DNA of 64,000 nucleotides, taken from the NCBI RefSeq assembly GCF_023016525.1, contig NZ_JALKCG010000002.1, positions 376,001-440,000 of the forward strand. The letters run 5' to 3'. This stretch comes from Ancylobacter koreensis (GTDB lineage Bacteria; Pseudomonadota; Alphaproteobacteria; Rhizobiales; Xanthobacteraceae). Below the pieces are notes generated by a model that was not told the origin of the DNA, made no database searches, and saw nothing but the letters and a program-made list of their open reading frames with translations. A program made the position numbers and the translations under genes. Position 1 is the first letter of the stretch. Each line of letters begins with the position of its first letter. Shown here one piece after another: positions 40,818 through 58,315 of the stretch.

Positions 40818-40840
40818 TGGCATTAGGTATACCACATACC
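40818..40840. promoter_or_regulatory. Operator-like inverted repeat upstream of the small membrane protein
   Basis: TGGCAT-TAGGT-ATACCA at 40818-40834 has the same half-sites as the sites before gntR at 56714 and panE at 45238. It overlaps a second inverted repeat, GGTAT-ACCAC-ATACC, at 40826-40840. It ends 50 bases before the small gene's start codon. Confidence 0.55.
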
Positions 40841-40890
40841 CGATACATTCATTACGCTGCGATGCAGCAAATGAAGGATCGGAGATCCCC

Positions 40891-41019
40891 ATGTTCCAGT
40901 CCGTGTTCCCCCTGCTGCCGGTGCTCATCGTCTGCCACGCGTGGATGACGATCCTGATCGCCGAGACGCTCGGCAATGAGGAGGGCGCGGCGCTGCCGCC
41001 CGAGTGCTACCCGGTCTGA
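40891..41019 (+). CDS. Small single-pass membrane protein, 42 residues
   Basis: An ATG at 40891 with GGAG six bases upstream opens a 42-residue frame. Residues 2-25 (FPLLPVLIVCHAWMTILIAE region) form a hydrophobic helix, followed by an acidic tail ending ECYPV. A GCTGC-GAT-GCAGC hairpin lies in the leader. The upstream operator-like site ties it to the GntR-associated sites of the oxalate island. The final codons and stop fall in a 16-base tandem repeat. I recognise no homologue, so expression is unproven. Confidence 0.45.
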   Translation: MFQSVFPLLPVLIVCHAWMTILIAETLGNEEGAALPPECYPV

Positions 41020-41065
41020 GTGCTACCCGGTCTGAGCGCCACCCGTTTGATCGCTACCCCGCCCG
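41002..41065. repeat. 16-base tandem repeat across the small gene's stop codon
   Basis: GAGTGCTACCCGGTCT occurs twice in exact tandem (41002 and 41018), followed by GAGCGCCACCCGTTTG and ATCGCTACCCCGCCCG. The TGA stop lies where the first and second copies meet. Confidence 0.75.
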
Positions 41066-41131
41066 AAGCGCGTCCCGGCTGTGGCGGCGTCTGGCTCGGC
41101 AATCCGGTTGCCGGAGCACCTGCCTGAAATG

Positions 41132-41162
41132 AAAAACCCCGCGCCGTCGCCGGCGCGGGGTT
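41132..41162 (-). terminator. Terminator of sucC-sucD
   Basis: Read on the minus strand, AACCCCGCGCCGG pairs with CGGCGCGGGGTT around a short GAC loop and runs into TTTTTC. It lies 41 bases past the sucD stop. A transcript from the plus strand could also fold here. Confidence 0.8.
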
Positions 41163-41202
41163 CGTTCGTTTCGGGGCGGCCGGAGGACCGCCGGACTGTC
41201 GA

Positions 41203-42099
41203 TCAGGCCGCGGCGCGCTTGTTGAGCACGTCGATCAGCGTCTTGCCGAGGCGCGCGGGCGAGGGCGAGACCACGATGCCGGCCTCTTCCATCGCCGCGA
41301 TCTTGTCCTCGGCGCCGCCCTTGCCGCCGGAGATGATGGCGCCGGCATGGCCCATGCGGCGGCCGGGAGGGGCGGTGCGGCCGGCGATGAAGCCCACCAT
41401 CGGCTTCTTGCGGCCGCGCTTGGCCTCGTCCTTGAGGAACTGCGCCGCTTCTTCCTCGGCCGAGCCGCCGATCTCGCCGATCATGACGATCGACTCGGTG
41501 GCGTCGTCGGCCAGGAACAGCTCCAGCACGTCGATGAACTCGGTGCCCTTGACCGGATCGCCGCCGATGCCGACGGCGGTGGTCTGGCCGAGGCCCTCCT
41601 GCGAGGTTTGGAACACCGCCTCATAGGTCAGCGTGCCCGAGCGCGAGACGACGCCGACCGAACCCCTCTTGAAGATGTTGGCCGGCATGATGCCGATCTT
41701 CGATTCGCCGGCGGTGACGATGCCGGGGCAGTTCGGGCCGACGAGGCGGGACTTCGAGCCGTCCAGCGCGCGGCGCACCTTCACCATGTCGAGCACCGGG
41801 ATGCCCTCGGTGATGCAGACGATGAGCGGGATTTCCGCCGCGATCGCCTCGCAGATGGCGTCGGCCGCGCCCGGAGGCGGCACATAGATGACCGAGGCGT
41901 CGGCGCCGGTCTTCTCCTTGGCCTCGGCCACGGTGTCGAACACCGGCAGGCCGAGATGGGTGGCGCCGCCCTTGCCCGGCGAGGTGCCGCCGACCACCTT
42001 CGAGCCATAGGCCAGCGCCTGCTCGGAGTGGAAGGTGCCGTTCTTGCCGGTGAAGCCCTGGGTGATGATCTTGGTGTTGCTGTCGATGAGGATGGACAT
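41203..42099 (-). CDS. sucD: Succinyl-CoA synthetase alpha subunit
   Basis: CoA-binding and phosphohistidine subunit of 298 residues. The CoA-binding Rossmann segment [15 protein letters not shown] lies near residue 15, [11 protein letters not shown] near 72 and GPNCPGI near 122; the phosphorylated histidine is in [10 protein letters not shown] near 246. It overlaps the sucC stop by one base (TGATG). This TCA-cycle enzyme is housekeeping; it sits among oxalate and glyoxylate genes here and can also make succinyl-CoA, a CoA donor for Frc. Confidence 0.96.
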
Positions 42100-55943: not shown

Positions 55944-56669
55944 CTAATCTAGGTCTACGTGGCTCTCGACATGCCTTGCGAGGCGGAGCGTATGGTCTCG
56001 CACCAGACGCTCGGCACGGTCCGCGTCCCGTGCCTCGAGAGCGATTATGATCTCCAGATGGTCCGACGCCGAACGCTGCGCCCTGTCCATCTCGAAGATC
56101 GTGCGGTGGCGGATGGCCCGTACATGGAAGAACAGGTTTTCCGTCATCGCCGCGAGCAGCGCGGAGCCGCTCAGCCCGATCAGCGCCTGGTGGAACGCGA
56201 TATTCGCCGTCGAATATTCGTCGCACCGGTCGCGCTCGATCCGGGACAGATCGAACTCCTTGAACAAAGTCCTGAGCCCGGCGATCGCCTCGTCGCTCGC
56301 GCGCTGCGTCGCGAGGCGTGCCGCCATGCTTTCGAGCGCCGCCCAGGCCTCGATCATCTCGATGATCTCGGGCTTGGAACGGCGTACCACCATTATGCCC
56401 CGCCGGGGCACGGCGCGAAGCAGGCCTTCCTGCTCCAGCATCGCGACCGCCTCGCGGATGGGCGTCCGGCTCGCGCCAAGACGCTCCGAAATATCCCGCT
56501 CGTCGAGCAGCATCGGCTCGCTAGAGCCGTAGATGTTCATGTTGGTGATGGCTTCCTTGAGAGCGGCATACGCCTTGCTCTTGAAGCTCTCCTTGGCCGG
56601 CAGACGCTCGATGGCCAGGCCATTGTCGCCGCTCTGCCAGCGCTTGCTCAGAACCGCCTTGCTGCTCAC
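55944..56669 (-). CDS. GntR/FadR-family (FCD) regulator, first copy
   Basis: Regulator of 241 residues. The winged helix covers about 38-100, with [25 protein letters not shown]. The FCD effector domain at 105-235 has metal-ligand residues in [15 protein letters not shown] and [14 protein letters not shown]. It is upstream of oxc on the same strand and so probably the first gene of the oxalate operon. The site TGGCAT-N5-ATACCA 45 bases before its start suggests autoregulation. A second, related regulator lies 432 bases upstream. Confidence 0.88.
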
Positions 56670-56713
56670 CGAAGCGTCCTCTGCGGAAAGGCCGCCGGGG
56701 ATTTTCGGGAAAG
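56670..56713. promoter_or_regulatory. Leader of the first GntR gene
   Basis: Between the operator-like site and the start codon lie GC-rich bases with GGCGGCC and AGGACG, a weak ribosome-binding region. No other feature is seen. Confidence 0.3.
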
Positions 56714-56730
56714 TGGCATACCAAATACCA
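56714..56730. promoter_or_regulatory. Operator-like inverted repeat before the first GntR gene
   Basis: TGGCAT-ACCAA-ATACCA. It resembles the GntR/FadR-type operators of the UxuR or NanR kind (TGGTAT/ATACCA halves). Identical half-sites occur at 45238-45254 and 40818-40834. Confidence 0.65.
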
Positions 56731-56844
56731 ACATGTCAATTCGGTTGTCCCCCAAGTCGGGGACCAACGGCGCTCCTCGTTCCCTGTGGCGGCGGGTCTT
56801 TTCGCCCGGTCCACACGCGTTCCGCATGGCCTCGACCACGCTTG

Positions 56845-56861
56845 CGTATGCAATATACCAC
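56845..56861. promoter_or_regulatory. Degenerate operator-like repeat between the two GntR genes
   Basis: GCGTAT-GCAAT-ATACCA has one perfect half-site and one weaker one, with the same five-base spacer. The surrounding gap (56731-57100) contains no gene. Confidence 0.4.
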
Positions 56862-57100
56862 GACTCGATGCGCGTGGCGAGGGCGACGGAACAGTTTGCT
56901 GCGACCTGTGGTCAAAAGTTCGCGGGCCCGTTCCGTATGGGAAGAATCGCGCGTGCGAGGGCCGGCGGGCGGACGGCGCCCAAGGGCTGGGCGGGCCAAG
57001 GCGGGCAGGTAACGCCGGCAAGGCGCGGCGCCCGGGAGAGTGAGATTGCGCGGCGCGCCGGTGCGCGCCGCTTCAAGGAATATCTCAGGCAGAGAGGCGG

Positions 57101-57802
57101 TCAGGAGGGGAAGCGGCCGTGCTTCTCCACATGGGCGGCGAGGCCCAGAGTGTGCTCGCGCACCAGCCGCTCGGCGAGATCGGCATCGCGCGCCACCAGC
57201 GCGGCGATGATGCCGCGATGCTCCTGCAGCGAGCGCTCCGAGCGGTTTTCCTGCCGCATCGACACGGCGCGGATGCCGCGGATGTGGATGAACAGGTTCG
57301 CCGTCATCTCGCCGATCATCTCGCAGCCGCCGAGCCGGATGATGGTCTGGTGGAAGCGGATATTGGCGTCGGAATATTCGTTCACATGCTCGCCCGGCGC
57401 CTCGTCCTCGAAATCGTGGAAGACGTCACGCAGCTCGGCGAGGTCGCGGTCGCTGGCGCGGCTGGCGGCGAGGCGCGCGGCCATGCTCTCCAGCGCGGCC
57501 CAGACGATGATCATGTCGATGATCTCGCGCTTGGACTTGCGCACCACGAAGATGCCCCGGCGCGGCACGGAGCGCACGAAGCCTTCCTGCTCCAGCACGG
57601 TGAGCGCTTCGCGGATGGGGGTGCGGCTGACGCCGAGATCGTTGGAGAGCTGACGCTCATCGAGCCGGATCTCGTTGTCCTGCCCGTACATGTCCATTTC
57701 GGTAATCGCCTTCTTGATGGCGTCGTAGGCCAGCGTGCGAAGGCTTGTATTCGCGGCGAGCGGCGCGATGTTCAGGCGGGCTTGGGTGTCGGCGCTTTCC
57801 AC
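57101..57802 (-). CDS. GntR/FadR-family (FCD) regulator, second copy
   Basis: Regulator of 233 residues, clearly paralogous to the one at 55944: [28 protein letters not shown] in parts, and the FCD residues EYSDANIRFHQTIIR and HRGIIAALVARDAD. It is divergent from the first OxlT-like gene. A GTAT-N5-ATAC inverted repeat lies 149 bases upstream. The two copies may have split roles, one for transport and one for catabolism; this is inference. Confidence 0.87.
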   Translation of the reverse strand: MESADTQARLNIAPLAANTSLRTLAYDAIKKAITEMDMYGQDNEIRLDERQLSNDLGVSRTPIREALTVLEQEGFVRSVPRRGIFVVRKSKREIIDMIIVWAALESMAARLAASRASDRDLAELRDVFHDFEDEAPGEHVNEYSDANIRFHQTIIRLGGCEMIGEMTANLFIHIRGIRAVSMRQENRSERSLQEHRGIIAALVARDADLAERLVREHTLGLAAHVEKHGRFPS

Positions 57803-58315
57803 GGGCGGCTTCCTCGTCAGTGCGGAACGGCTGTTGTTCTTGTTTGGTGTCCCGTGCGGGCGGCGCGGATGCGCGCCGACGCCGGGCCGATTACGCGACC
57901 GTCCCCACGATCATTGGCGATTCTCTTTCGGGAAACAGTCCGGGGGAGGATCGTATATCGAATACAGAATGTCCATCCGGCCATCCGGCGGGGGGCGCCG
58001 ACGATTCGCAGGACTGTGCCGGCGCCGGCAAGGTCGGGAAAAGCGCTCCCGCGCCGTCCGGCCGGCGCGGGAACGCCGCGTCTTCATCGGCCGCTTTCAC
58101 CTTTCATCCCGTCCACCTTTCACCCCGTCATAGGCCGACGGCCGGCGTTGAGGCCGGGCGGGGAGCCGTGCGTCCGGCCTTGCGCGGGCGGGCGGCGGAA
58201 GGAGTGCTGCGGCGACCTTCCCTAAGGGATGACGTAGCGTAATAAAGCCGTAGTATATCCTTACGTAAACTGACGCTAGGTAAGTCATCTTACTGTTAAA
58301 TGCACCATTTTCTGG
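57803..58315. other. Divergent gap between the second GntR gene and oxlT
   Basis: It holds the site TCGTAT-ATCGA-ATACAG at 57951-57967, and an AT-rich stretch from about 58220 with ACGTAGCGTAATAAAGCC. No protein-coding frame here looks real. Confidence 0.4.

What the first reader, a model, noticed from the sequence alone, without database searches (positions are those of the whole stretch)
40818..57967. One operator-like motif links oxc-frc, panE-FAH and a small membrane protein
TGGCAT-N5-ATACCA occurs with identical half-sites before the first GntR gene (56714), panE-FAH (45238, reverse orientation) and the 42-residue gene (40818). Weaker versions lie at 56845, 57951 and over the -35 of the second OxlT gene (60155). 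The half-sites resemble FadR-type GntR operators. Three exact 12-base matches with the same spacer in one 16-kb region are not expected by chance, and all lie intergenic. The simplest reading is a GntR regulon that includes two functions not known in oxalate use.
Basis: partly seen in the sequence, partly recalled or inferred. Interest (0 to 1): 0.72.

Follow-up and report, generated by a model that had tools for sequence, protein, structure and literature searches.

The report
Conserved GntR-type operator of oxalate regulon
Three matching DNA switches in this bacterium probably let a GntR-family regulator control genes for oxalate use, including a tiny membrane-like protein of unknown job, and the same switch recurs beside oxalate genes in many related bacteria.

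Summary
TGGCAT-N5-ATACCA is exact at 40818, 45238(-) and 56714; TGGYAT-N5-ATRCCA occurs nowhere else in the 4.06-Mb genome. In 30 genomes of the genus (Ancylobacter) the panE site is identical in 30 and the gntR1 site in 29. The third site keeps its half-sites while its spacer varies, and a conserved 42-46 residue ORF follows it in 28 of 29 genomes. In 66 panE loci of other genera, chosen without regard to the motif, there are 68 exact sites against 0 for the reversed pattern, before oxlT, CBS-panE, panE, GntR, tctC and acetyltransferase genes. I read it as the operator of an FCD-type GntR regulator, most likely the first GntR, which heads gntR-oxc-frc. Promoter geometry suggests repression, relieved by oxalate or a product; binding and effector are untested. 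The FAH gene and small protein remain unexplained. It is a new regulon of a known kind; my library searches showed no earlier report.

The parts
40818..40834 (+). operator before the small-protein gene, TGGCATTAGGTATACCA
   Evidence: 12 of 12 in 20, 11 in 7 and 10 in 1 of the 28 genus genomes that have the gene
40891..41019 (+). gene of a 42-residue membrane-like protein (one hydrophobic stretch by eye), probably its own transcription unit
   Evidence: found in 28 of 29 genus genomes, all with ATG, pN/pS 0.45 over 241 pairs; no Pfam match; terminator-like hairpin at 41134-41163
43431..44204 (-). FAH-family hydrolase gene, second in the panE unit
   Evidence: PF01557 and PF10370
44216..45193 (-). 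panE-like gene, probable oxalyl-CoA reductase
   Evidence: NF005089 526 bits; literature passages
45238..45254 (-). operator of panE-FAH, TGGCATACAAAATACCA, abutting a promoter-like -10
   Evidence: identical in 30 of 30 genomes; TTGACT-17-AATCAT ends at 45254; TTGAC 27-28 bases before the operator in 14 of 14 loci L041-L054
50806..52086 (-). frc (formyl-CoA transferase)
   Evidence: TIGR03253
52232..52672 (-). PAS-domain protein gene in the operon
   Evidence: PF00989
52781..54058 (-). second frc
   Evidence: TIGR03253
54161..55900 (-). oxc (oxalyl-CoA decarboxylase)
   Evidence: TIGR03254
55944..56669 (-). gntR1, FCD-type regulator, first gene of the oxc-frc operon; likely reader of the operator
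   Evidence: PF00392 and PF07729; its clade has a site at -54 to -71 in 7 of 7 complete non-genus upstreams
56714..56730 (+). main operator of gntR1-oxc-frc, TGGCATACCAAATACCA
   Evidence: identical in 29 of 30 genomes
56844..56860 (+). second, weaker operator; read on the minus strand it holds an extended -10 (TGGTATATT)
   Evidence: 28 of 29 genomes; promoter scan
57101..57802 (-). gntR2, paralogue (55% identical to gntR1 over 220 residues)
57951..57967 (+). weak site upstream of gntR2, TCGTATATCGAATACAG
   Evidence: 9 of 12; GTAT-N5-ATAC kept in 12 of 28 genomes
60155..60171 (+). weak site upstream of the second oxlT, TGGCATACATAATATTG
   Evidence: 9 of 12; invariant 17-mer in 17 of 21 genomes; could be promoter sequence

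Best explanation
The motif is the operator of an FCD-type (FadR-subfamily) GntR regulator of oxalate assimilation, most likely GntR1. GntR1 heads its own gntR1-oxc-frc-PAS-frc operon and would control itself. Without inducer it would sit on the promoters of gntR1-oxc-frc, panE-FAH and the 42-residue protein gene and block them. Oxalate, or an early product such as oxalyl-CoA or glyoxylate, would release it, switching on decarboxylation (oxc/frc), reduction to glyoxylate (panE) and the accessory genes together. GntR2 probably reads a related, weaker version. Shown here: existence, genome-wide specificity of the exact form, conservation, gene linkage and overlap with promoter-like sequence. Inferred: which protein binds, repression rather than activation, the inducer, and that the small protein acts in oxalate use.
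For: Exact sites only at these 3 places in the genome. Genus: panE site identical in 30 of 30, gntR1 site in 29 of 30; 103 sites in all against 2 for the reversed pattern over 30 genomes (sums by hand; listing completed). At the small-gene site 10 of 12 half-site positions have 0-0.23 bit entropy (first T 0.69, Y 0.99) while the five spacer positions run 0.61-1.68 bits (27 of 28 rows). Outside the genus: 68 sites in 66 panE loci, reversed control 0, five shuffles 0, 1, 0, 0, 0; by hand they precede oxlT (22), CBS-panE (18), panE (7), GntR (9), tctC (6) or acetyltransferase (6) genes; the 18 CBS genes and the acetyltransferase genes were checked by tblastn, the tctC genes. GntR1 clade: 7 of 7 complete upstreams have 11-12 of 12 at -54 to -71. 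Family sample of 61 genomes: 83 sites against 11 control; of the 65 listed sites in oxc+ genomes 36 lie within 20 kb of oxc, 30 of 59 without the genus. A promoter-like -10 abuts the panE operator, and one lies inside the second gntR1 site.
Against: No binding or expression data. 20 of 46 oxc+ genomes in the family sample have no exact site; 5 of 15 genomes without an oxc hit have 10 between them; 29 of the 65 listed sites in oxc+ genomes lie over 20 kb from oxc or on another contig. 29 of 66 non-genus panE loci have no exact site. GntR2-only Xanthobacter-group loci have no exact site, and 17 of 26 GntR2-clade upstreams score 9 or less of 12, so protein and motif do not pair uniformly. The oxlT1 promoter in this genus carries another palindrome instead. 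Promoter assignments are consensus matches only, and none was found before the small gene.
Confidence: 0.84

Rival explanations
1. GntR2, or GntR1 and GntR2 together, is the main reader of the operator; GntR1 is only one target.
For: GntR1 and GntR2 are 55% identical. In Microvirga both genes are preceded by an exact site (L082). In the stretches held, some Azospirillum loci and a Rhodospirillaceae locus show only GntR2-clade proteins, with 11-12 of 12 sites.
Against: GntR2's own upstream in this genome has only a 9 of 12 site. GntR2-only Xanthobacter-group loci lack exact sites, whereas GntR1-clade genes have an 11-12 of 12 site in 7 of 7.
Confidence: 0.3
2. The sites are activator sites: the GntR protein turns the promoters on when oxalate is present.
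For: FadR-subfamily proteins can do both (recalled). At gntR1 the main site lies next to a TTGAC block kept in 29 of 29 genomes whose role is unclear, and it lies downstream of the promoter-like -10 in the second site.
Against: At panE the site lies directly downstream of a promoter-like -10 and would cover the start of transcription. The second gntR1 site covers a -10.
Confidence: 0.15
3. The motif belongs to a general dicarboxylate or carbon regulator, not to oxalate use in particular.
For: One-mismatch sites before mdh and tctC, and at two further places, recur in the genus; sites also precede an acetyltransferase in Azospirillum.
Against: Exact sites are confined to the oxalate locus in this genome, and a TctC relative (64-74% identical) is encoded inside the panE loci of 24 of 66 relatives.
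Confidence: 0.12
4. Chance or promoter similarity without a regulator.
For: AT-rich motif in promoters; 181 places match with up to two mismatches, against 103 for the reversed pattern.
Against: 0 in shuffles, only three exact places in the genome, cross-genus recurrence before the same genes.
Confidence: 0.01

Closest known systems
FadR-subfamily (FCD) GntR regulons, as in PMC4494728
   Same: FCD effector domain; site at the regulator's own promoter; palindrome with GT/AC boxes; extra half-sites 7-12 nt from the centre are described there (passages and sections 10 and 17).
   Different: Inner GT-AC gap of 2 plus an equally conserved outer half-site, giving a 17-bp palindrome; the word oxalate does not occur in that paper's main text.
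NanR and NagQ direct-repeat operators (TGGTATAW; TGGTATT)
   Same: Same half-site word TGGTAT; the gntR1 site can be read as TGGTATT-TGGTATG at a 7-bp step.
   Different: By the definition of the pattern the outer half-sites here are inverted; NanR and NagQ sites are given as direct repeats (PMC4494728, passages).
PanE2 / oxalyl-CoA reductase route of Methylobacterium extorquens
   Same: PanE-family gene in one locus with oxc, frc and a tartronate semialdehyde reductase gene.
   Different: No operator or regulator is given in the passages I read; here it is tied to a GntR-type site.
BhcR/IclR-type glyoxylate regulators
   Same: An IclR-type gene (best model BhcR, 313 bits, below its cut-off of 350) lies at 49504.
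   Different: Another protein family; whether it touches this motif was not tested.

Membership tests
FadR/FCD subfamily of GntR regulators (GntR1, GntR2) | N-terminal GntR winged helix plus C-terminal FCD domain | tested here: met
   PF00392 41.6 and 44.1 bits, PF07729 80.2 and 95.7 bits, all over cut-off
FadR/FCD subfamily of GntR regulators (GntR1, GntR2) | metal/ligand residues D/N-x3-H, H, H of the FCD pocket (recalled) | tested here: inconclusive
   phmmer alignment of GntR1 to 3fms/3sxy shows three His aligned and Asp replaced by Asn, by eye; no structure was made; GntR2 not aligned
FadR/FCD subfamily of GntR regulators (GntR1, GntR2) | binds the operator and is released by a carboxylate effector | not testable with these tools
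   needs gel shift or footprinting
FadR-subfamily operator | palindrome with GT and AC boxes 2-3 nt apart (PMC4494728) | tested here: inconclusive
   GT-AT-AC type core in 18 of 28 distinct non-genus 17-mers against a mean of 4.1 (maximum 10) in 1000 spacer shuffles, and in all three window sites by eye; 10 of 28 lack it
FadR-subfamily operator | extra half-site 7-12 nt from the site centre | tested here: met
   TGGYAT half-site about 9 nt from the GTATRC centre in sites that have the core (by eye)
oxalyl-CoA reductase (PanE2) | orthology to M. extorquens PanE2 | tested here: inconclusive
   PanE2 sequence not in hand; the window protein is 72-73% identical to Cupriavidus proteins (L110, L118, L120) whose loci hold frc/oxc; the paper gives 51% between a C. 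necator protein and PanE2
oxalyl-CoA reductase (PanE2) | reduction of oxalyl-CoA to glyoxylate | not testable with these tools
   enzyme assay needed

The most novel reading that the evidence does not exclude
A dedicated oxalate-sensing FCD GntR regulator with a composite 17-bp operator governs an oxalate regulon across Alphaproteobacteria that reaches beyond the oxc-frc locus (tctC, mdh and two further places elsewhere in this genome), and in this genus it includes a new 42-residue membrane protein that serves oxalate uptake or the OxlT antiporter.
Probability: 0.35. Interest if true: 0.68.

Novelty: new member of a known kind. Interest (0 to 1): 0.52.

Why it matters
Oxalate is a large carbon pool in soils and plants (general knowledge). 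My searches of the held library showed no report of a bacterial GntR regulator of oxalate use or its operator (0 papers; 1 paper, not read; only 20 of 47 and 20 of 107 listed, judged by title). The motif gives a direct handle: it points to the regulator, predicts target genes outside the locus, ties the reductase branch to the decarboxylase branch, and marks a small protein without a known family and a FAH hydrolase as likely parts of oxalate use.

Tried and rejected
Chance: rejected. The small protein was sought over 149 family genomes, 7 of them of the genus: outside the genus only weak fragments came up (best E 0.037), so no wider family is claimed. The oxlT1 palindrome ATGCAAAATTTTGCAT was considered as a variant operator; it is single-copy in the genome even with two mismatches and none was found in the 80 panE loci (those of the genus end before oxlT1), so I treat it as a different element. 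The conserved one-mismatch sites at C12:596180 and C19:102332 have unclear targets: the first lies downstream of an N-formylglutamate amidohydrolase-family gene, the second at the start of a conserved 72-residue ORF without Pfam match. Papers: 0 hits (FAH with oxalate and formyl-CoA transferase); 1, on Bradyrhizobium nodules, not read; judged from the 20 titles listed in each. No fold prediction was run: it would not decide binding.

Rows dropped: L093 and L112 were left out of the GntR tree and upstream counts because the gene is cut by the locus end. The G025 small-gene stretch does not exist on its contig, so 29 genomes were compared there; G025 also lacks the gntR1 site. G026 has only 38 bases upstream of gntR2. 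One of 28 rows (10 of 12) was left out of the entropy calculation. The Gcl and SucD queries were taken out of frame (13 and 1 internal stops, replaced by X) and their labels are used in no count. In one search only 75 of 83 sites were listed.
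Full report
Observation. TGGCAT-N5-ATACCA is present exactly at 40818 (+), 45238 (-) and 56714 (+), and 100 shuffles of the window gave none. In the whole genome (4,057,091 bases, 19 contigs) the wider pattern TGGYAT-N5-ATRCCA is found at these three places and nowhere else; the reversed pattern gives 0. All three lie between genes as I read the ORF list.

Setting. gntR1 (55944-56669) is followed after 43 bases by oxc, frc, a PAS gene and a second frc, all on the minus strand. 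panE (44216-45193) and a FAH-family gene (43431-44204) form a second unit. Families come; labels for gcl, hyi and sucCD are my reading of the ORFs and were not scanned. The small gene runs from ATG 40891 to 41019 on the plus strand. A terminator-like hairpin at 41134-41163 separates it from the convergent sucD, so this gene, or a small RNA, is the obvious target of the 40818 site.

Genus comparison. Relatives with 92-98% identical PanE are mostly titled Ancylobacter. In 30 genus genomes the panE 17-mer is identical in 30 and the gntR1 17-mer in 29; the missing one, G025, is 91% complete. The small-gene site is the informative one because it has diverged: among 28 genomes with the gene it scores 12 of 12 in 20, 11 in 7 and 10 in 1, with spacers such as TAGGT, GTGGT and CTGTT, starting 67-79 bases before the ATG. 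The gene is found in 28 of 29 genomes (not G002), always with ATG, 42-46 residues, pN/pS 0.45 over 241 equal-length pairs. It has no Pfam match and no convincing relative among 149 family genomes outside the genus members in that sample.

Weaker sites. The 56844 site is kept in 28 of 29 genomes. Read on the minus strand it contains an extended -10, TGGTATATT. The 57951 site keeps its GTAT-N5-ATAC core in 12 of 28 genomes. The 60155 site is an invariant 17-mer in 17 of 21, so it is conserved, but it could be promoter sequence. Of 15 one-mismatch sites elsewhere in the genome four were followed up: upstream of tctC (TctC present in 6 of 9 loci fetched), upstream of mdh (7 of 10; both counts include our own genome), and C12:596180 and C19:102332, each found at the matching place in 5 of 5 genomes fetched.

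Other genera. Sixty-six loci were chosen by panE similarity, not by the motif. They hold 68 exact sites in 1.22 Mb, reversed control 0, five shuffles 0, 1, 0, 0, 0; 37 of 66 loci have at least one and 29 none. By hand the 68 sites precede oxlT (22), CBS-panE (18), panE (7), GntR (9), tctC (6) and acetyltransferase (6) genes; six of the oxlT sites in Azospirillum also face a divergent acetyltransferase gene. The 18 CBS genes and the acetyltransferase genes were found by tblastn; one protein each of the CBS, TctC and acetyltransferase kinds was confirmed by Pfam. The TctC protein that has a one-mismatch site in our genome is 64-74% identical to TctC proteins encoded inside 24 of the 66 loci, which independently supports it as a distant member of the regulon.

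Results against. Eight Xanthobacter, Aquabacter, Azorhizobium and related loci have 10-11 of 12 matches before panE but none exact; most Pandoraea and the Cupriavidus loci have 10 of 12; Bradyrhizobium-type panE has no good site directly upstream because a CBS gene stands between. In a family sample of 61 genomes there are 83 sites against 11 control. 26 of 46 oxc+ genomes have at least one site and 20 have none; 5 of 15 genomes without an oxc hit have 10 sites between them, five of them in G068. Of the 75 sites listed (of 83), 65 lie in oxc+ genomes and 36 of these within 20 kb of oxc, 30 of 59 without the genus itself. Some genus genomes carry extra exact sites elsewhere, several with GC-rich spacers that look like chance.

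Which protein. GntR1 and GntR2 fall into two clades (99/98 support; the tree warns of long branches, W_GntR1 among them). All 7 complete upstreams of GntR1-clade genes outside the genus carry an 11-12 of 12 site at -54 to -71. Of 26 GntR2-clade upstreams 5 reach 11-12, 4 reach 10, and 17 have 9 or less. I therefore favour GntR1, with GntR2 a likely second reader in some lineages.

How it probably works. At panE a promoter-like TTGACT-17-AATCAT ends on the first base of the operator, and TTGAC lies 27-28 bases before the operator in 14 of 14 loci L041-L054, so the operator would cover the transcription start. At gntR1 the second site covers a -10; next to the main site a TTGAC block is kept in 29 of 29 genomes without a clear -10 partner. 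This fits repression and autoregulation. No promoter-like match was found before the small gene. The FCD domain of GntR1 aligns three histidines with those of solved FCD proteins, which fits a metal-bound carboxylate ligand; oxalate, oxalyl-CoA or glyoxylate are guesses. Shown: site, conservation, linkage, overlap with promoter-like sequence. Inferred: binding, repression, inducer.

Motif structure. In 18 of 28 distinct non-genus 17-mers the spacer ends in GT (or starts with AC, the same on the other strand), giving GTATRC, against a mean of 4.1 and maximum of 10 in 1000 spacer shuffles; all three window sites have it. The paper PMC4494728 (passages and sections 10 and 17 read) reports FadR-subfamily sites with GT and AC 2-3 nt apart and additional half-sites 7-12 nt from the centre. 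The present operator can be read as such a core plus a strong extra half-site, or as a 17-bp palindrome; the data do not decide.

Known background. PMC8411744 (passage) describes PanE2 as a putative oxalyl-CoA reductase that the authors characterised; PMC7486775 (passages) proposes a C. necator homologue near frc-oxc for the same reaction. The original 2012 work on M. extorquens is recalled and was not read. PMC12927642 and PMC13344952 were searched for terms only: neither holds the term GntR in its main text.

Verdict. A real, conserved regulatory element; an ordinary kind of system with, as far as my searches show, an unreported regulon, worth a direct experiment.

Noticed in passing
window 58313-58332: TGGTATGCAAAATTTTGCAT upstream of oxlT1: its 16-base palindrome is exact in 18 of 22 genus genomes whose oxlT1 start was in the stretch, in 19 of 29 stretches, and single-copy in the genome even at two mismatches; looks like the operator of another regulator.
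   Followed up: partly
window about 40790-40807: A box like CATGCG-N4-5-GCA lies upstream of the small-gene operator in many genus genomes (by eye).
   Followed up: no
L004 around 3165 and L005 around 3052 (own genome C11:108664, C12:53051): One-mismatch sites upstream of tctC and mdh that recur in the genus; probable distant regulon members.
   Followed up: partly
L006 around 3181 and L007 around 3333 (own genome C12:596180, C19:102332): Two further one-mismatch sites, conserved in place in 5 of 5 genomes fetched each; L007's overlaps the start of a conserved 72-residue ORF without Pfam match.
   Followed up: partly
L106, L109, L114, L116, L117: Rhodopseudomonas loci show GntR1, frc and panE but no oxc in the stretch held: perhaps reduction of oxalyl-CoA without decarboxylation.
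   Followed up: no
L075, L078, L088, L090 and others up to L115, about 0.6 kb before panE: Bradyrhizobium-type loci place a CBS-domain gene of about 140-150 residues between the operator and panE, 18 loci.
   Followed up: partly
window 52232-52672: A lone PAS-domain protein gene sits between the two frc genes and recurs in relatives; role unknown.
   Followed up: no
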